Source: Thiohalophilus thiocyanatoxydans | Lineage (GTDB): Bacteria; Pseudomonadota; Gammaproteobacteria; UBA6429; Thiohalophilaceae | NCBI RefSeq assembly: GCF_004366735.1 | Contig: NZ_SOQX01000003.1 | Span: 186,001 to 250,000, forward strand | Reading direction: 5' to 3' | DNA length: 64,000 nucleotides | In this document: positions 3,236 through 60,329 of the stretch, piece by piece | Numbering within the stretch: position 1 is the first letter of the stretch | Layout of the letters: each line of letters opens with the position of its first letter | Notes under the pieces: generated by a model | The model's database searches: none | Seen by the model: the letters and a program-made list of their open reading frames with translations, nothing else | Told to the model about the DNA's origin: nothing | Translations under genes and position numbers: made by a program

Positions 3236-3275
3236 AACAGGGCCGAGGGACGAGTTACGAGGGACGAGGAAAAGC
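3236..3275. repeat. Dispersed 40-bp repeat (family B), single arm
   Basis: The 40 bases starting right after the Fe-S gene are identical to 16832-16871. The core is GGGACGAG-TTAC-GAGGGACGAG. Only one arm is present here, whereas the other locus has an inverted pair. Confidence 0.85.
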
Positions 3276-9191: not shown

Positions 9192-10067
9192 ATGCAGATC
9201 ATCCATGCCGTACGCGACATGCAGCTGCAAAGCCTGTCGTGGCGGGCCGCCGGCTGGCGCATTGCCTTTGTGCCGACCATGGGCAATTTGCATGAAGGCC
9301 ACCTGAGCCTGGTCCGCGAGGCCGCGCGCCGGGGCGACAGGGTAGTGGTCAGTATCTTCGTCAATCCGCTGCAATTCAACGAGGCCGCGGACTACCGGCA
9401 CTATCCCCGGACGTTTGAGCAGGATCGCCAGCAACTGGCGGCACTGGATGTGGCCGCCGTGTTCGCCCCGGACGAGGCGGCCATGTATCCCGAAGGACGC
9501 GAAAGTGTGACCCGGGTGGAGGTGCCGCAGTTGACGAGCGAACTGGAAGGCGCACATCGCCCCGGCCATTTCACCGGCGTCGCCACGGTCGTGACCAAGC
9601 TGTTTCAGGCGGTGCTGCCGGATCTCGCACTGTTTGGCGAGAAGGATTATCAGCAGTTGCTGGTGGTGCGCAAGCTGGCGGCCGATCTGAATATGCCCGT
9701 GGAAGTGATCGGCCTGCCAACCCGCCGGGAAGCGGACGGCCTGGCCATGAGCTCGCGCAACAGCCGGCTCAGGGCGCCCGAACGCCGCCAGGCACCCGCG
9801 TTATACGCCACCCTGCAGTGGGTCGGCGAGCAGTGGCGCGCGGGTGAGATCGATTTGAGCGCGCTGGAGGCGGCGGCGATGGCGCGGCTTGCGGATGCCG
9901 GGTTTGCCCCCGAATATATCAGCCTGCGCGATGCCGCCACCCTGCAGCCTCCCGCTGCCGGGCGGCCGGTGGTCGTTCTGGGCGCCGCCCGCCTTGGCGA
10001 GGTCCGGCTGATCGACAACCTGCGGATCGGCGCCACGCAGCCGCAAGGCGCCGACGCTGTCAAGTGA
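9192..10067 (+). CDS. panC: Pantothenate synthetase
   Basis: ATP-dependent condensation of pantoate with beta-alanine. The product is 291 residues, with the HIGH-like motif FVPTMGNLHEGHLSLV (about 27-41), FGEKDYQQL and the KMSKS-like AMSSRNSRL loop. It follows the DUF4156 lipoprotein gene by 6 bp and belongs to the folK-pan operon. Confidence 0.96.
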   Translation: MQIIHAVRDMQLQSLSWRAAGWRIAFVPTMGNLHEGHLSLVREAARRGDRVVVSIFVNPLQFNEAADYRHYPRTFEQDRQQLAALDVAAVFAPDEAAMYPEGRESVTRVEVPQLTSELEGAHRPGHFTGVATVVTKLFQAVLPDLALFGEKDYQQLLVVRKLAADLNMPVEVIGLPTRREADGLAMSSRNSRLRAPERRQAPALYATLQWVGEQWRAGEIDLSALEAAAMARLADAGFAPEYISLRDAATLQPPAAGRPVVVLGAARLGEVRLIDNLRIGATQPQGADAVK

Positions 10068-10182
10068 TGGCGCGAAAAACTCCTTATTAAAGAAGACCTT
10101 GTCTGGTAGGAAGCCCGCGTCGGGCATGCTAAAATAAACAGTCCGGAAAAGAGTCTCGTATTCAGAGAGGAAGCGCAGGACC

Positions 10183-10563
10183 ATGATGACCACCATGCTG
10201 AAGGCCAAACTGCATCGGGCCCGGGTAACCCACTCGGAGCTGGAGTACGAAGGCTCCTGCGCCATCGACGGCAAACTGCTGGAAGTTTCCGGGATCCGGG
10301 AATACGAGCAGATCGAAATCTACAACGTCACCAACGGTGAGCGATTTACCACTTACGCCATCCGGGCCGAAGATGGCTCCGGCATTGTCTCCGTCAATGG
10401 CGCCGCCGCGCACAGGGCCAACCCCGGTGATGTGATCATCATCTGCGCCTATGTCGGCCTGGACCAGAAAGAACTGGCCACCTACAAGCCCAAACTCGTC
10501 TACCTTGACGAAAATAACGACATTACCCATACCCGCAACACCATCCCCGTCCAGGTCGCCTGA
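10183..10563 (+). CDS. panD: Aspartate 1-decarboxylase proenzyme
   Basis: Makes beta-alanine from aspartate. The precursor is self-cleaved between G24 and S25 (YEGSCAIDG) to generate the pyruvoyl cofactor. The 126-residue length and the start [19 protein letters not shown] align with E. coli PanD from the first Met, so 10183 is preferred over the ATG at 10195. It lies 115 bp after panC. A degraded copy of its last ~55 bases occurs at 11643-11700. Confidence 0.96.
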
Positions 10564-10584
10564 CCTTCATTCTCTTCTCCAACG

Positions 10585-10730
10585 CTCTGGAAAATAACGC
10601 AGAGGACGCGGAGACGCGGAGAACGCAAAGTAATTTTGAATTCTGAATTTATCGGTGAATATTGTCATTCAAACCTCAAAATTCAATACTTAGAATTGTC
10701 ACTTTATTTTCTTTGCACCTCTGCGTTAAA
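10585..10730. repeat. Palindromic intergenic element, family A copy 2
   Basis: Left arm 10585-10629 (CTCTGGAAAATAACGCAGAG start), interior with AATTTTGAATTCTGAATTT-like AT-rich inverted stretches, right arm 10707-10730. The remaining 10731-10999 holds no gene I can support. Confidence 0.85.
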
Positions 10731-10999
10731 AGCCTTGTAAACCAGTTAACCACGTTCGGTGTGTTCTGTGAATTCGGTGTTCCAGTAAAACGAACCCTGA
10801 AGATAATTTCGGATGTCACCAACGTTGCTTGCTGACGTTCGACGACATTACATAAACTTCTTTGCGATTATTCGCATGTGCTTATCTTGGTGTTAGTTTT
10901 CCGTGGCTCAAAAACATCCTTGATTAAACCGCTTCAGATCGATTTATACGCCGGCGGGTTGCATTGGTACCTGGTTAAAGGTAATGTTTTTGAGTAGCA

Positions 11000-11075
11000 G
11001 ATGGTGAGGTGTCTCACTATCAGAATAACAACGCTGATTTACCCGGCGTTGTTTATTAAACAATAACGATATAAT
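11000..11075 (+). promoter_or_regulatory. Two palindromes and a -10 box upstream of the DsrE-like gene
   Basis: A 9-4-9 inverted repeat, GATGGTGAG-GTGT-CTCACTATC (one mismatch), lies at 11000-11021. A perfect 7-1-7 palindrome, TTGTTTA-T-TAAACAA, lies at 11049-11063, directly upstream of a consensus TATAAT at 11070-11075. The second palindrome would cover the -35 region, as expected for a repressor or anaerobic/redox regulator. The regulator is not identifiable from sequence. Confidence 0.5.
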
Positions 11076-11110
11076 TAAAAATGTCATAAGAGCTATTTGA
11101 GGAGATTACT

Positions 11111-11560
11111 ATGCATAAAGTGACGAATTTTGTAAAAGGTGGACTGGTTTCGGCGGTACTGGCCACTGTTTTTCTGGGGCAGAGCGCCCTGGCGGGATCG
11201 ATGGATGCGGATCACAAGGTGATCATTCAGGTCAGCACGGATGATCCCCGTACCCAGAAAATTGCCCTGAATAATGCGGCAAACCTGCAAAAAGCATACG
11301 GAATGGATAATGTTGACGTGCAGATTGTCGCCTATGGACCGGGGCTCGGCCTGCTTTCCAAAAACGGCGATAATGCCGATCGGGTCGAGAGCATGGCAAT
11401 GCAGAATATCAACTTCAATGCCTGTTCCAATACCATGGCCAAGATAGAAAGCAAAAAAGGTAAAAAGCCTGCCCTGGCCAAGGGGGTAGAAGTGGTTCCC
11501 GGTGGTGTCGCCCGGATAGTCGAACTGCAGGAACAGGGCTACGCCTACATCCGTCCGTAA
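11111..11560 (+). CDS. Exported DsrE-family protein
   Basis: A 149-residue protein with a signal peptide (cleavage near residue 28, SALA-GS) followed by a DsrE/F-like domain: HKVIIQVSTDDPRTQKIALNNAANLQ, VDVQIVAYGPGLGLL and RVESMAMQNINFNACSNTM. The single conserved cysteine, C105, is in the position used by DsrE-type sulfurtransferases. Periplasmic DsrE-like proteins are common in sulfur oxidisers, and a sulfur-carrier role is inference. The ribosome-binding site TGAGGAG (11098-11104) supports the start. It is a single gene with its own promoter and terminator, flanked on both sides by repeats. Confidence 0.85.
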   Translation: MHKVTNFVKGGLVSAVLATVFLGQSALAGSMDADHKVIIQVSTDDPRTQKIALNNAANLQKAYGMDNVDVQIVAYGPGLGLLSKNGDNADRVESMAMQNINFNACSNTMAKIESKKGKKPALAKGVEVVPGGVARIVELQEQGYAYIRP

Positions 11561-11588
11561 GCTTGTTAGCAAAAAACTTGATCATGCA

Positions 11589-11614
11589 AAGGGCCGGTTT
11601 ACCGGCCCTTTTCT
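11589..11614 (+). terminator. Terminator after DsrE-like gene
   Basis: AAGGGCCGGT / ACCGGCCCTT, a 10-bp stem with a 2-base loop and a short T-run. Confidence 0.85.
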
Positions 11615-11642
11615 ATTCAATAACAAACCCGGAAGCGTCTGC

Positions 11643-11700
11643 CTCGACGAAATAACCCCATTACCCACGCCCGCAACACCATTCCCGTCCAGCTTGCCTG
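11643..11700 (+). pseudogene. Duplicated remnant of the panD 3' end
   Basis: The segment aligns along its length with 10505-10563, the last codons of panD (shared words include CCCGCAACACCAT and CCCGTCCAG), with scattered substitutions, a 1-bp deletion and loss of the stop codon. It is followed, as at panD, by a family A repeat (11717 on), so the gene end and its downstream repeat were copied together. It is not expressible. Confidence 0.85.
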
Positions 11701-11716
11701 GTCCCTTTTTCACTTT

Positions 11717-11765
11717 CTCTGGAAATGAACGCAGAGGACGCGGAGGCGCGGAGACGCAGAGAAGG
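11717..11765. repeat. Family A repeat, left arm only (copy 3)
   Basis: CTCTGGAAATGAACGCAGAG-type arm followed by AT-rich interior sequence; no matching right arm before the next elements. It follows the panD remnant. Confidence 0.8.
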
Positions 11766-11834
11766 CGAAAAGACAATTATAAATATTGAATTTTTGATTT
11801 TGAATTGCGATCCCACATTTGACTTAATATCTGC

Positions 11835-11936
11835 CTGTAGGTCAGGTTGCGTGCAGCGCTACCTGACAAACGCGAGTAAGTGAGCGCCAATAAATAATAA
11901 AGAAGTCACACAGGCGGAGCCAGCGTGACCAACGGA
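11835..11936. repeat. REP-like hairpin pair
   Basis: The first hairpin, 11835-11870, is GTAGGTCAGGTTGC...GCGCTACCTGAC. The second, 11907-11936, reads GTCACACAGGCGGAGCCAGC and resembles the reverse complement of the hairpin at 23567-23600. This is a pair of inverted REP units in intergenic DNA. Confidence 0.65.
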
Positions 11937-11942
11937 ACTATC

Positions 11943-12097
11943 CCTGGAAATGAACGCAGCGGGCGCGGAGTGCGTAAAGTAATTTTGGATGCTGAATTGT
12001 TCTTTGAAATTGTCATTCAAAATCCAAAATTGTCACTTTGTATTCTCTGCGACTCCGCGACTCCGCGTCCTCCGCGTTTTTTTACTATTCTGGAGAA
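11943..12097. repeat. Palindromic intergenic element, family A copy 4
   Basis: Left arm 11943-11980 (CTGGAAATGAACGCAGCGGG), AT-rich interior, right arm 12041-12097 (CTCTGCGACTCCGCGACTCC...). It lies downstream of ppc, which ends at 12132. Confidence 0.85.
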
Positions 12098-12131
12098 ATG
12101 GAATTCACTGCTGAAACAGTGCATTCCAGAT

Positions 12132-14966
12132 TTAACCGGTGTTTCGCATACCCGCGGCGATGGCGTTGATGCTGCGCAGTAGCGGGTTGAGCCATTGGTT
12201 GCGGTCTTCCTCGCTGATTGATTCGTCGCGGAAACGCTCGATGAGGATGCGCTGGATCTGGTTGAGGGGATCCAGGTAGGGGTTGCGCCGGGTGAGGGAG
12301 AGGGCGAGGTTGGGGGTTTCGGCCATCAGTTCCTGCAGCCGGGCGGCTTCGAGCACGCGCAGACGGGTGCGGTTGTATTCGGCGTTGATCATCTTGTAGA
12401 TGGTGTCCGCAGTTTGCGGATCCTTGCACAGATCGGCGTAATCGCGGGCGATGTGCATGTCGGCCTTGAACAGTGACATCTGGGTATTGCTCAGCAGGGC
12501 GCTGAAGAAGGGCCATTGCTGGTACATCTCCTGCAGCTTTTGCAGTTTTTCCGGACTGCGACCGACCCATTTTTCCAGGGCCATGCCGATGCCGTACCAC
12601 GCGGGGATCGTATGGCGCGACTGGGCCCAGCCGAAGACCCAGGCGATGGCGCGCACCGACTCCTTGGAGCGATCGGTTTTCTTGCGATGCGAGGGGCGCG
12701 AGCCGATGTTGAGCAGCCCGATCTCCGATACCGGGGTGGCTTCGTAGAAGTAATCCAGAAAGCCGGGGGTGTTATCGGTCAGTTCGCGATAATGTTGTTC
12801 ACCGGTTTTGGCCAGTTGCGCCATGATATCCAGGTATTCGGGGTTATCCGGCGGCGGCGGTTCGATCAGGTTGCGACTGGCCTTGAGCAGTCCAGTAATG
12901 CCCATGGTTAGCTCGTAAACGGCGGTCTCCTGGTTGCTGTATTTATAGGAGAGCACTTCACCCTGTTCGGTGAACTTGATCTCGCCGTGTACAGTACCGG
13001 TCGGTTGCGACAGGATCGAGTCATGGGTCGGGCCGCCGCCGCGGCCCATGGTGCCGCCGCGACCGTGGAACAGGCGCAGGCGGATGCCGCGTTGCTGGGT
13101 CAGGGCGGTGATCTGCTGCTGGGCCTGATACAGGTTCCAGGTGGAGGCGAGAATGCCGCCGTCCTTGCAGGAGTCGGAATAACCCAGCATCACTTCCTGG
13201 GTGTTGTCCGCGGCTTTGAGCAGTTCGGTATAGGTCGGAATATCCAGCAGGCGGTTCATCACCGGTTCGATATGGGCCAGGTCGTTGACCGTCTCGAACA
13301 GCGGCGAAATATGAATATGGCAGAACGGCTCACCGTCACGGTAGCCGGCCAGTCCGGCCAGCCAGCCGAGGAACATCACTTCCAGTACATGACTGGCCTG
13401 ATGGGTCATGGAGATGACGTAACTGCCAAAGGCGTGCGGGCTGACTTCCTCGCGCAGCCGGGTCATGACCTGGAATACCTCGAAGGTCTCCCGGCTCATC
13501 TCGCTCAGTTTTTCAGTGTCGATCTCCGCGGGCGGCTGGCGAATCAGTTCAGCCAGTTTGTGCAGCCGGCCATCTTCATCCAGCGCGGCGTAGTCGCTGC
13601 CGTCGATCTGGCGAATGATTTCGCTGACCGTTTCGGTGTGAATGGTCGATTCCTGACGAATATCCAGATGAGCCAGATAGAAACCAAAGGTTTCCACCAG
13701 TCGGATCAGGTTCTGCAGCTCACCGTCGGCGATGACCCGGTCGCCGTGACTGATGAGCGAATCGCGGATCAAAGAAAGATCCTTGAGCAGTTCGTGTTCG
13801 TTGATATAACCGCAACCCAGGCCGACATACTCGGCATCGGCGATACGTGACTGCAGCTTGTCCAGGGTCGCCTGCAGGCGCTTGTGCATGAGGAACAGCT
13901 TGCGCCGATAAGGTTCCTGTTTAAAACGGTGCGGATGGTCGGCAAAGATGTGCGGGTACCGCTGTTCATCCCCTTGCAGGCTGTCGTTAAAGGCGGCGTT
14001 GGGTTCGCACAGCTGGGAAGAGTGGGTCAGGGTCCGGCTCAGACCGCGGACGCGCTCGGCGTATTCCTCGACGGCGGCATGGGCCATCATGTTGACGGCC
14101 TTGACAGTGGTTTCCGGCTTGACGAACGGATTGCCGTCGCGGTCGCCGCCGATCCAGGAGCCGAAGCGAATGAAGCTCGGCACGCTCACACCGTGGTCAC
14201 GGCCATAGATATGGTTAAGGGATTTTTCCAGGTTGCGGTAGGTCTCCGGCACCGCATCGAACAGCGATTCCTTGAAGTAATAGAGCCCGTTTTTGACCTC
14301 GTCCAGCACCTGCGGCTTGTCCACCCGTACCTCGTTGGTCTTGTACAGAATCCGGATGTGGCGGCGCAGCTTCTCCTGAATTTCCTCACGCTGATTAAGT
14401 GTCAGACCGGGGATGTCCAGCTCTTCGCTGATTACGAAGATGCGTCGCAGGGCCTCAAGAATGGTGCGGCGTTTCGCCTCGGTCGGATGGGCAGTGAATA
14501 CGGGAATGTAGGCCAGCCGGTTCAGCAGGGTCTGGACCTGCGCCGGCTCGATACCGTCACCTTCCAGCTCTTTTAATATGGCGTGGTAGGACCCCTTCCA
14601 GGTGGGGCCGGTTTTACCGGCATCACGACGACGCATGCGATGCTGGAAGGATTCCTCGGCGATATTGACCAGACTGAAATAGATAGCGAATGCGCGCACC
14701 ACATGGACAAGGGTCTCGGCATCGAGCGTGGCGGTATACTCGGCCAGCTTGCGGCGCTTGTTCGGGTTGTCCGCCTCGCGCAGGCTGATGTGGCCCTTGC
14801 GCAGCGTTTCCACGGCGTTGAAGACCTCTTCACCGGCGTGCTCGCGCAGGATCTCGCCAAGGATATTGCCGAACAGCTTGACCCGGGAGCGCAACGGTTT
14901 GTCGTGCACAGGCCGATTGCCGGTTTGACGGGACCCGTCTTGCGAGAATTGTTTTTCTGCCGCCAT
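12132..14966 (-). CDS. ppc: Phosphoenolpyruvate carboxylase
   Basis: Anaplerotic carboxylation of PEP to oxaloacetate. From ATG 14966 the protein is 944 residues. Signatures seen are the catalytic-His motif VFTAHPTEA, the substrate loop GSWIGGDRDGNP, LGYSDSCKDGG and the Gly-rich loop FHGRGGTMGRGGGPTH (about residue 630). The C terminus ends AAGMRNTG, the conserved allosteric tail. A longer frame opens at 15095, but its first 43 residues have no family similarity and overlap the promoter region shared with pgi, so MAAEKQF is the chosen start. Divergent from pgi. Confidence 0.95.
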   Translation of the reverse strand: MAAEKQFSQDGSRQTGNRPVHDKPLRSRVKLFGNILGEILREHAGEEVFNAVETLRKGHISLREADNPNKRRKLAEYTATLDAETLVHVVRAFAIYFSLVNIAEESFQHRMRRRDAGKTGPTWKGSYHAILKELEGDGIEPAQVQTLLNRLAYIPVFTAHPTEAKRRTILEALRRIFVISEELDIPGLTLNQREEIQEKLRRHIRILYKTNEVRVDKPQVLDEVKNGLYYFKESLFDAVPETYRNLEKSLNHIYGRDHGVSVPSFIRFGSWIGGDRDGNPFVKPETTVKAVNMMAHAAVEEYAERVRGLSRTLTHSSQLCEPNAAFNDSLQGDEQRYPHIFADHPHRFKQEPYRRKLFLMHKRLQATLDKLQSRIADAEYVGLGCGYINEHELLKDLSLIRDSLISHGDRVIADGELQNLIRLVETFGFYLAHLDIRQESTIHTETVSEIIRQIDGSDYAALDEDGRLHKLAELIRQPPAEIDTEKLSEMSRETFEVFQVMTRLREEVSPHAFGSYVISMTHQASHVLEVMFLGWLAGLAGYRDGEPFCHIHISPLFETVNDLAHIEPVMNRLLDIPTYTELLKAADNTQEVMLGYSDSCKDGGILASTWNLYQAQQQITALTQQRGIRLRLFHGRGGTMGRGGGPTHDSILSQPTGTVHGEIKFTEQGEVLSYKYSNQETAVYELTMGITGLLKASRNLIEPPPPDNPEYLDIMAQLAKTGEQHYRELTDNTPGFLDYFYEATPVSEIGLLNIGSRPSHRKKTDRSKESVRAIAWVFGWAQSRHTIPAWYGIGMALEKWVGRSPEKLQKLQEMYQQWPFFSALLSNTQMSLFKADMHIARDYADLCKDPQTADTIYKMINAEYNRTRLRVLEAARLQELMAETPNLALSLTRRNPYLDPLNQIQRILIERFRDESISEEDRNQWLNPLLRSINAIAAGMRNTG

Positions 14967-15155
14967 GGTGGTTTGACTGTTTCGGTTGCAAAATGACCGC
15001 ACATTATAGCCGTCAAACTGTGGGGTGTGTCCATTGACGGCGTATTTTCTCTGTGATCCGAACGGCCCGGCAAACAATGGTTGCCTTGCCAGCATAGCGT
15101 GGTAGTATCTTTATAAGCCTGTAAGCTAATGAATTATGAAGGATTTGTGACCGTC

Positions 15156-16831: not shown

Positions 16832-16992
16832 AACAGGGCCGAGGGACGAGTTACGAGGGACGAGGAAAAGCGATTGCGTAATCCCGACTCTGTATCATTG
16901 TTGCCAGCTCACGCGATAATACATTGACGGAAAATTCAGGAAGGAATCAGGGGCAGGGGGCTTTTTCCTCGGCCCTCGTAACTCGTCCCTGT
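16832..16992. repeat. Family B repeat as an inverted pair
   Basis: The left arm, 16832-16871, is identical to 3236-3275. The right arm, 16960-16992, is its near-perfect reverse complement (GCTTTTTCCTCGGCCCTCGT...). About 88 bp lie between them. The element sits between pgi and tRNA-Leu and could fold into a long hairpin. Confidence 0.85.
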
Positions 16993-57860: not shown

Positions 57861-58390
57861 ACCACGGCAAAGCGTTGTCGAAATACTGGAAGCTCTGACA
57901 CTTCTTCCGACTATCATTGCTGTCATCAAAGCGTTTTGACAAGGGAGGCGATCCTGCTCAGGTTAAGCCTGAGTGAGGTCGCAACCCATGCCATACATGA
58001 ACGGATATTGCTCTCGCTGATGATCGATTCATGAGAACAGGTTGTTCAGGTCGAGGACGATTGGGGTGTGGAGGCCTCGGTTGCAATGCCGAAGACTATC
58101 ACCGGAGTCGGCGGGGGTAACTGTTTCTCCAACTTTTTGGATGATGATGCTGCAGGGCGAATAATTGCCAACGGATAGAATTATCGGAATTAGTTTTCAG
58201 GACGATAAAAATGTTGAAGCACTACTCTTAACACGCGGTTGGAAAACTTGTGTTATTACATACTGAAACCGAATCGTTGAAAGATGCCGTATGGTGCATC
58301 AGGTGAAGGATTTGTTTCTCCCGCATAGTAAAACCGCAGGGGCTTTCGCTGCTGCCTTCTGTTATACCACAACAAGTGGAATACAGGAAT

Positions 58391-58545
58391 TCAATCAGAT
58401 CGTTTAAATTCCGGAGCAGACTTCAGATCTCTCGGGTCGTTTTAATCTTCAATTCGTCCTTATCAGACGAGCCAGATCGGTTTACCGCGTCCCGGCCAAT
58501 GGCGATGTCTTTCTTGCCCATGCCCAGGAATCCGTCACCACAAAC
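58391..58545 (-). pseudogene. Decayed copy of the PRC-barrel gene 3' end
   Basis: Read on the minus strand it encodes DGFLGMGKKDIAIGRDAV...SGSSDKDELKIKTTREI, matching the C-terminal part of the intact gene at 59862-60329. A one-base deletion puts a TGA after TREI. The homology extends past the stop into the 3' flank (58298-58390 versus 59766-59861), including the hairpin. The flanking stretch 57861-58297 shows nothing I can identify. Confidence 0.88.
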
Positions 58546-58993
58546 AAGGTGAGTATGCTGTCCACACACACTCTGCAACTGTGTACGGATTGGTGATAAG
58601 CGCTCTCGTAGTGTGTCCTTTCCCGGCTACTGCCGGGGCGATACCCATTATTTTTTTATGACTCACGCACGGATTGTTCTCACACTACGGCCAATACCCG
58701 GCTCCAGCGTGGGTCACGTGCACCATCGTTTTCCGCTAACGCCTGCTCAGTCTGATTTTCATGAATTGACATAATCCGGGGTTGCCGATAGGGTTTTGGT
58801 CAGATTCGAGTACAGTTCGCAAGTCGCAGGGATGCCCAATTTTAGCTTGAGCATAAGCGAGCATTTTGTCGGTGCGATGGCGCACCTACTGTAGTCATTG
58901 TTCGTTATCCTGTACCGGAGTCCCCGTGCGCCTTCAAAGCACTTTTGCAGGGTCGATTCCGGTGCCTTCAGGTATCTTTTTCAGGAGTCTGCG

Positions 58994-59752
58994 GTGCGAT
59001 CAATCACGCGTGTATCCCTACCCATACTGGCATTAATCATGGCCGGGCTTCTGCCTCTGGCGTTCCCGCTGCCTGCCCATGCCAGCGAAGGTGGGTATCG
59101 GCTGCTCGAGCTGGACGGCTACAAGGTGAAGTGGGGAGACCGGCGCCTGGGTGTAGGGGCCAGCATCAGCTATGCCTTTGCCGCAAAGACGCTACAGTTC
59201 GATGAGGCGCGCAACTGTCGTGATCTGGCGCCGATTGAAGCGCTTTTTGGGGATGAACTCTCCAGCGAGACGCTGGCGCGCGAAACCGCGGCGGCGTTTC
59301 AGGTCTGGGAGCGCGCTGCCGGTCTGTCGTTCCATGAGGTTGACGATGCCCGGGATGCGGACATCATCCTCGGTGCCCAGGGACAGCCGCGTGGGCGGGC
59401 TTACGCCAACGTATCCTACGCACCCGATCCGGCGGAGGGGGTGCGCGCCATCGAACAGGCGCTGGTGTGCCTGAATCCCGACCATGAGTGGAAGATCGGG
59501 TTCAACGGTGATAAGGATGTCTACGACATCCGCTATACGCTGATTCACGAGATCGGTCACGCCATCGGCCTGGACCATCCCGGGCCATCCGGGCAGGTGA
59601 TGGCGTTTCGCTATACCGAGGCCTTCGACGATCTGCAGCCCGGCGATCTGCGTGGCGTCCAGTTGCTTTACGGGCGAGCCGCCGATGACGTCGTTACTCA
59701 ACTGGCCCGGAAATCGAGCGACGAGACCCTCTCACGCCAGCAATCTGATTGA
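58994..59752 (+). CDS. Metzincin (M10-type) zinc protease, exported
   Basis: A 252-residue product from GTG 58994 (AGGAG six bases upstream), with a signal peptide (VSLPILALIMAGLLPLAFPL...HA-SE). The zinc motif HEIGHAIGLDHPG (about 185-197) is the full metzincin HExxHxxGxxH. The Met-turn is in the following GQVMAFRY. There is no obvious propeptide Cys-switch. It is a matrixin-like secreted protease, with substrate unknown. It sits between the decayed and intact PRC-barrel copies. Confidence 0.85.
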   Translation: MRSITRVSLPILALIMAGLLPLAFPLPAHASEGGYRLLELDGYKVKWGDRRLGVGASISYAFAAKTLQFDEARNCRDLAPIEALFGDELSSETLARETAAAFQVWERAAGLSFHEVDDARDADIILGAQGQPRGRAYANVSYAPDPAEGVRAIEQALVCLNPDHEWKIGFNGDKDVYDIRYTLIHEIGHAIGLDHPGPSGQVMAFRYTEAFDDLQPGDLRGVQLLYGRAADDVVTQLARKSSDETLSRQQSD

Positions 59753-59800
59753 TCATTCTTTTATCATCGAGTTAAGGGTTTGTGCCGTCCGAATAGGAAA

Positions 59801-59826
59801 ACGGCAGGGACTTTCGCCGCTGCCGT
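59801..59826 (-). terminator. Hairpin after the PRC-barrel gene
   Basis: ACGGCAG / CTGCCGT stem followed on the minus strand by TTTT. A diverged version is present at the pseudogene copy. Confidence 0.6.
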
Positions 59827-59861
59827 CTGTTATTCCACTATTATAAGTGGGTGACAGGAAT

Positions 59862-60329
59862 TCAATCCTGGGTTTTAAACTCCGGCGCAGACATCAGATC
59901 CTCGCGGGTCGATTTAATCTGCAGTTCGTCCTGATCAGAAGAGCCAGAGTGGCTTACATTATCCCAGCCAATGGCCACGTCTTTCTCACCCATGCCCAGG
60001 AATCCGCCGACACCGACGACAATACCCACGACCTGACCTTTCTGATCAATAATCAGGTCACTCACCGAGCCCACCTCCTCATTATTGGTGGTTTTAACCT
60101 CGGCTCCGATCAGGTTGCTTGCATGCCTGCCATTGGCCGGCGCAGAACTCAGATAGCCCTGGCTCTGCATCTGAGACTGGTCTTGCTTGTTATCCTGGTA
60201 ACTCTGAGAACTCTGCTGTTCACGATCCATCTTCTTGTCAGAAGAGGATTCAGCCAGCACAGAACCCGCGCCTAACGCTATAACGGGTGTAACCAGTGCA
60301 TAAAAGGTAAGTGAATGTAAATTTTTCAT
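59862..60329 (-). CDS. PRC-barrel domain protein, exported
   Basis: 155 residues from ATG 60329 (AAGGAG ribosome-binding site), with a signal peptide cleaved near VLA-ES. A Gln/Ser/Asp-rich linker (SSDKKMDREQQSSQ) precedes a PRC-barrel: SNLIGAEVKTTNNEEVGSVSDLIIDQKGQVVGIVVGVGGFLG and KDVAIGWD. Exported PRC-barrel proteins are stress-associated in proteobacteria; the function is not established. The longer ORF to 60440 is rejected. Confidence 0.83.
   Translation of the reverse strand: MKNLHSLTFYALVTPVIALGAGSVLAESSSDKKMDREQQSSQSYQDNKQDQSQMQSQGYLSSAPANGRHASNLIGAEVKTTNNEEVGSVSDLIIDQKGQVVGIVVGVGGFLGMGEKDVAIGWDNVSHSGSSDQDELQIKSTREDLMSAPEFKTQD

What the first reader, a model, noticed from the sequence alone, without database searches (positions are those of the whole stretch)
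11643..11765. panD tail copied together with its downstream repeat
The remnant at 11643-11700 matches the last ~55 bases of panD, followed, as at panD, by a family A arm. The copying unit therefore included gene and repeat, pointing to replication slippage or recombination between repeat arms with the intervening DsrE segment.
Basis: seen in the sequence. Interest (0 to 1): 0.55.

Follow-up and report, generated by a model that had tools for sequence, protein, structure and literature searches.

The report
panD gene-tail copy at intergenic repeat
A worn copy of the last 80 letters of the vitamin-pathway gene panD, together with the start of the repeat that follows it, lies about 1.1 kb further on beside another copy of that repeat; several other places in this genome show a similar scar, so these repeats may help copy scraps of neighbouring genes.

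Summary
The copy is real and longer than stated. Window 10484-10579 (last 80 nt of panD plus spacer) matches 11623-11719 (score 49.5; best of 1000 shuffles 17.5); panD is its only other match in the genome. A family A arm follows both copies. Differences fall evenly over codon positions and the frame is broken: the copy is decayed. DsrE is not tied to it: the one congener held (G001) has panD-repeat-DsrE-repeat-ppc without the remnant. The arm after the remnant looks chimeric: front like the panD-side repeat, rear like the congener's ppc-side repeat, though ranks shift with the cut. Other family A sites show similar scars: 6 of 60 own stretches (this one included) and 2 of 62 in G001 hold a local direct duplication that abuts or contains arms, two of them 3' ends of an SDR and a carbonic anhydrase gene. 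Best reading: copying between family A elements, one joint in the repeat and one illegitimate, in this lineage at about the age of its split from G001. The type of process is known; the recurrence is mildly interesting; the exact mechanism is unproven.

The parts
10183..10563 (+). panD (aspartate 1-decarboxylase); source of the copied tail (10484-10563)
   Evidence: ORF 126 aa; Pfam Asp_decarbox E 1.6e-47
10585..10735 (.). family A element rep1 (left arm from 10585, right arm to about 10725); front of the chimeric arm resembles it
11111..11560 (+). DsrE-family gene (N-terminus looks signal-like by eye, not tested); lies between the two panD-tail copies
   Evidence: ORF; Pfam DsrE E 9.1e-07; same position in G001
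11623..11701 (+). decayed copy of the last 80 nt of panD: one-base deletion, stop codon lost, 16 differing columns of 80 counting the gap
11702..11716 (+). copied spacer between panD stop and repeat, weakly conserved
11717..11806 (+). family A left arm after the remnant; looks chimeric: front like rep1, rear like the congener's ppc-side repeat
11837..11868 (+). REP-like palindrome (family B, GTAG head) between the arms on the ppc side; many copies in the genome
   Evidence: format compared with PMC2817692 passages
11942..12085 (.). second ppc-side family A element; its left part (11942-12010) finds rep1 of G001 and of the own genome as best matches
12132..15095 (-). ppc (phosphoenolpyruvate carboxylase), convergent neighbour; lies behind panD in 18 of the 29 relatives' loci L002-L030, and in a longer stretch of a further one

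Best explanation
The remnant is a fossil of a local copying event between two family A elements. In this lineage the element on the ppc side of DsrE was repaired or copied using the element behind panD as template. Synthesis or strand exchange entered through the shared arm, ran outward past the arm through the spacer into the last 80 nt of panD, and was then joined without homology just behind the DsrE terminator. The donor panD stayed intact and the copy decayed. DsrE and both repeats were already in place. Shown: the homology, its extent and uniqueness, absence in the congener, decay, and similar scars at other family A sites. Moderately supported: the two-faced arm. Inferred: strand invasion or template switching in the arm, the illegitimate second joint, and the order of events.
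For: Homology far above chance and unique in the genome. G001 keeps the order panD-rep1-DsrE-repX-ppc without the remnant. Chimeric arm: with a cut at 11755 the front ranks own rep1 first of 315 arms (tied with L214) and G001 repX 261st, the rear ranks G001 repX first and own rep1 76th; the same crossing holds at cuts 11745 (front rep1 2nd, repX 287th; rear repX 8th, rep1 41st) and 11762 (front rep1 14th, repX 268th; rear repX 4th, rep1 82nd). Recurrence: 6 of 60 own and 2 of 62 G001 stretches have a local direct duplication within 25 nt of, or containing, arms at both copies; position-shift control for own mean 1.7, p 0.0025. Neighbouring gene sequence is copied elsewhere too: SDR 3' end 81 nt at 97.5%, with no such second copy in G001; carbonic anhydrase 3' end 212 nt at 90%; upstream region of msrB, 52 columns at 87%. 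No own match between different stretches that abuts arms passed the filters, so in this genome the copying looks local. At the 10 columns where own and G001 panD tails differ, the remnant matches own at 7, G001 at 2, neither at 1.
Against: Only one congener is held, so loss in G001 is not excluded; the tree test (own, remnant and 11 of 29 relatives) is short of significance (AU p about 0.06). The cut in the arm was chosen after seeing the sequences; at cuts 11745 and 11762 neither rep1 nor repX is the top match, and one G001 element (L214) is among the top three for both halves at cuts 11745 and 11755, so the arm could be an unbroken member of a subfamily. The shift control keeps, per stretch, the pair nearest to arms, which favours the reading; the window also holds a pair far from arms that the per-stretch count hides (58297-60013). 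In G001 alone the enrichment is not significant (2 of 62, p 0.21), its two cases are tandem units that contain arms, and G001 has 3 matches between stretches that abut arms. At L113 a piece of the other neighbour gene is copied as well, which fits plain tandem duplication better than one-sided copying. No microhomology is visible by eye at the old panD joint (sequences).
Confidence: 0.5

Rival explanations
1. Two steps: a tandem duplication of panD tail-rep1-DsrE with an illegitimate joint behind DsrE, then deletion of the second DsrE by recombination between the copied rep1 and the ppc-side element, leaving panD tail plus a hybrid arm.
For: Gives the same final order and the same hybrid arm. 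Tandem duplications exist at family A sites: L131 and L162 have an arm between the units, L181 and L205 are tandem units that contain arms; L113 carries pieces of both neighbouring genes.
Against: Needs two events; no trace of a second DsrE in 11806-11941 (score 9.0, shuffle maximum 16).
Confidence: 0.25
2. Displaced tail: DNA carrying panD tail-repeat-DsrE came from another strain, recombined homologously in panD and illegitimately downstream; the remnant is the old native panD end pushed aside, later lost in G001.
For: Gene-cargo-old tail order is what homology-facilitated illegitimate recombination would leave; the carbonic anhydrase locus also has another gene between gene and tail copy, and a search with that stretch lists no match to this other gene in G001 and no second tail beside the G001 carbonic anhydrase gene.
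Against: Needs loss in G001; the remnant shares own rather than G001 states at 7 of 10 sites and groups with own panD (not significant). Own DsrE is 393 of 450 identical to G001, near the 88-90% of other shared stretches, with no sign of late import.
Confidence: 0.18
3. Simple replication slippage between the two arms.
For: Arms are similar and palindromic.
Against: Copies are 1.1 kb apart start to start with other sequence between, and the copied tail lies outside the arm.
Confidence: 0.05
4. Chance resemblance.
For: None found.
Against: Score 49.5 against a maximum of 17.5 in 1000 shuffles; E 4.8e-14 genome-wide.
Confidence: 0.005

Closest known systems
Homology-facilitated illegitimate recombination (PMC3240628; outline and abstract seen)
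   Same: One homologous joint and one illegitimate joint
   Different: There linear DNA enters the cell from outside; here the template seems to be the neighbouring repeat on the same chromosome
Displaced effector genes in Vibrio cholerae T6SS clusters (PMC5361080; search listing with start of abstract only)
   Same: Order gene, newer DNA, leftover of an older gene (how far this holds there is recalled)
   Different: No intergenic repeats are invoked as far as recalled; here only short gene ends are left
MITE-like small mobile sequences of bacteria (PMC2229807, PMC2759123; search listing with start of abstract only)
   Same: Short intergenic elements with inverted repeats in many copies
   Different: Own transposition and target duplications of family A were not tested
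REP elements with RAYT Y1 transposases (PMC2817692; passages seen)
   Same: Family B repeats have the GTAG head and palindrome; both genomes hold Y1 transposase genes
   Different: Family A shows no GTAG head in the copies printed; the scars abut or contain family A arms

Membership tests
MITE-like element (family A) | many intergenic copies | tested here: met
   Core pattern at 139 exact places in the own genome, reversed-pattern control 0; intergenic placement seen at the loci read in full, not counted for all
MITE-like element (family A) | terminal inverted arms | tested here: met
   44 paired plus-then-minus elements, 30 unpaired arms, 1 minus-then-plus neighbour pair in the 60 own stretches
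MITE-like element (family A) | target-site duplication and a cognate transposase | not tested
   Not examined
Homology-facilitated illegitimate recombination | one homologous and one illegitimate joint | tested here: inconclusive
   Arm looks chimeric with caveats; other joint without homology visible by eye, but old and eroded
Homology-facilitated illegitimate recombination | incoming DNA from another cell | tested here: inconclusive
   Tree leans against, AU p about 0.06
Tandem duplication by slippage | adjacent full copies of a unit | tested here: not met
   No second DsrE relic in the stretch tested, 11806-11941; self-comparison of 10001-12200 shows no other copy of DsrE
REP/RAYT (family B repeat at 11837) | GTAG head plus short palindrome, many copies | tested here: met
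   One search lists 53 places for 11795-11975, most of them near-identical copies of 11837-11868; format as in PMC2817692 passages

The most novel reading that the evidence does not exclude
Family A palindromic elements are standing hot spots for local capture of flanking DNA: broken or stalled arms repeatedly prime copying outward into neighbouring genes, so that in this genome about one element stretch in ten carries a scrap or repeat of adjacent DNA, which makes these elements steady producers of gene-end pseudogenes and remodelled intergenic regions.
Probability: 0.3. Interest if true: 0.5.

Novelty: new member of a known kind. Interest (0 to 1): 0.35.

Why it matters
If such repeats regularly copy the ends of neighbouring genes, they give natural records of repair or replication errors in a wild bacterium and explain odd gene scraps that confuse annotation. 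Where a congener lacks the scar, as at panD and at the SDR gene, a site can be read as an event with a before and an after.

Tried and rejected
Link of the copy with DsrE arrival: rejected as a requirement, since G001 has DsrE without the remnant. Tail copies in other relatives: one search examined 20 panD-ppc gaps from 19 genomes (G007 entered twice, G001 included); none had a direct tail copy clearly above shuffles. L010 reached p 0.01 at score 11.5, equal to its shuffle maximum, in a simple-repeat spacer and was not counted. The reverse-strand signal in G007 (score 20 against shuffle maxima of 13 and 14) proved to be a palindrome over its panD stop, not a distant copy. A ppc-tail or second DsrE relic between the repeats: not found in the stretches tested. 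In one search one more of the 18 tests was low (panD against 10736-11110, score 13.5, shuffle maximum 14, p 0.007) and was not taken as real. Rough dating: remnant against own panD 64 of 79, own against G001 upstream of DsrE 211 of 292, which puts the copy at about the age of the split, with wide error; a DsrE third-position count was out of frame and was replaced (109 of 150). Paper searches for a published account of gene tails copied with intergenic repeats listed nothing that I recognised as the same; only two of the papers listed were opened, in part.

Counting choices: L125 was dropped because it repeats window DNA, and only the first 6 kb of L032 was used, the part before the window. 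Local pairs shorter than 35 nt were dropped in both calls; pairs more than 3 kb apart or more than 70% multi-locus repeat were also dropped, and stretches, not pairs, were counted. A few stretches overlap slightly (for example L124 and L171 by about 800 nt). The stretches were chosen because they hold arms; one search prints 100 of its 139 places and not all of these were fetched (for example C3:179788), so not all elements were examined. The same holds for G001, whose list was cut as well.

Full report
Observation. The panD tail really is copied. Window 10484-10579 aligns with 11623-11719 at score 49.5, against a maximum of 17.5 in 1000 dinucleotide shuffles. A search of the whole own genome with 11615-11725 returns only itself and panD, E 4.8e-14, 81%.

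State of the copy. Of 80 aligned columns 16 differ, one a gap. They fall 5, 5 and 6 on codon positions 1, 2 and 3, the gap counted at position 2; the frame is broken and the stop codon is lost. This is what neutral decay gives, not what another working panD would give.

Surroundings. Of the 29 relatives' loci L002-L030, all show panC beside panD and 18 show ppc behind it within the stretch; G012 shows it in a longer stretch. Of the 19 genomes whose panD-ppc gap was examined, 14 have a gap under 300 nt. Outside the genus no DsrE (E 1e-5) and no family A element (E 1e-4) was found in these gaps. The single congener held, G001, has panD-rep1-DsrE-repX-ppc, with DsrE 91% identical in protein, and lacks the remnant. 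DsrE insertion and tail copy are therefore separable. DsrE relatives occur in 39 of 40 family genomes searched, own and G001 included; in the loci compared, similarity to window 10565-12131 is confined to the gene and its immediate edges.

Age. At the 10 columns where own and G001 panD tails differ, the remnant matches own at 7, G001 at 2 and neither at 1. A maximum-likelihood tree of own, remnant and 11 of the 29 relatives joins remnant and own panD, with alternatives 2.2 lnL units worse and AU p about 0.06. Divergence of the remnant from own panD (64 of 79) beside own-G001 divergence upstream of DsrE (211 of 292) suggests an age near the split. A copy made after the split is favoured, not proven.

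The repeat. Family A is a MITE-like element with inverted arms. The core pattern has 139 exact places in the own genome, control 0, and 138 places with up to one mismatch in G001. Among the own stretches 44 paired elements and 30 unpaired arms were found. The arm after the remnant has two faces: with a cut at 11755 its front ranks own rep1 first of 315 arms, tied with L214, and G001 repX 261st, while its rear ranks G001 repX first and own rep1 76th. At cuts 11745 and 11762 the crossing remains (front rep1 2nd and 14th, repX 287th and 268th; rear repX 8th and 4th, rep1 41st and 82nd) but other arms are top, and one G001 element, L214, scores well on both halves at two of the three cuts. I take this as moderate support for a recombination joint inside the arm.

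Recurrence. In 60 own stretches (204 kb, the window included; 154 arms) and 62 G001 stretches (149 kb; 162 arms) I masked arms and looked for local direct duplications. In one search, after filters, 10 own stretches held one: in 6 a pair lies within 25 nt of arms at both copies (L113, L131, L154, L157, L162, window) and in 4 none does (L118, L129, L155, L166); the window also has one pair far from arms (58297-60013). Random shifts within stretches give a mean of 1.7 and p 0.0025, with the caveat that the pair nearest to arms stood for each stretch. G001 has 2 (L181, L205, both tandem units that contain arms) and 1 without (L216), p 0.21. Between different stretches no own match abutting arms passed the filters; G001 has 3, two of them from one shared contig-end stretch (L180 with L189) and one of 50 nt at 88% (L141 with L190). 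L113 carries the 3' end of an SDR gene (81 nt, 97.5%) plus a piece of the other neighbour gene; the G001 ortholog has a 129-nt gap and a single SDR tail. L157 carries the 3' end of a carbonic anhydrase gene (212 nt, 90%) with another gene between the copies, whose match to a beta-barrel family is below the curated cut-off. L154 carries the upstream region of msrB, with a weak match to its first codons (p 0.04). L131 and L162 are repeats of intergenic-looking sequence with an arm between the units, and L205 a tandem unit that appears to take in a few codons of a gene end (read by eye).

Mechanism. The cases share a local copy that abuts or contains a family A arm; the second joint is not in an arm or is unclear, except at L131 and L162, where exchange between arms alone could explain the units. 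Copying between neighbouring elements, entered through an arm and ended illegitimately, explains the panD case in one step. Duplication followed by arm-arm deletion explains it in two. Import with displacement of the old tail needs loss in G001. I favour the first at 0.5. Slippage and chance are disfavoured.

Known kinds. The pieces are known: MITE-like repeats (listing only), REP with Y1 transposases (PMC2817692 passages), and homology-facilitated illegitimate recombination (PMC3240628 abstract). What is new here is the instance and the hint that one repeat family does this repeatedly.

Noticed in passing
L033:8449-8493: In G007 the panD stop codon sits in a 45-nt palindrome (93% in a self-comparison); 20 coding bases that end two bases before the stop are mirrored exactly right after it.
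   Followed up: partly
L113:1225-1290 and L154:1170-1250: At both sites the end of the copied segment lies, by eye, within a few bases of a GTAG-type REP-like palindrome (sequences), which may mark the second joint.
   Followed up: partly
window 58297-58541 and 59765-60013: Direct duplication of about 249 nt at 78% identity, with no family A arm close by.
   Followed up: no
window 3236-3275 and 16832-16871: Identical 40-nt dispersed repeat, mostly multi-locus.
   Followed up: no
L180:1-957 and L189:1180-2136: 957 identical bases shared by two G001 contigs near the end of one of them: assembly overlap or recent duplication.
   Followed up: no
G000 and G001 whole genomes: Y1 transposase genes: 6 matches in the own genome (one with an inner TGA) and 3 in G001.
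   Followed up: no
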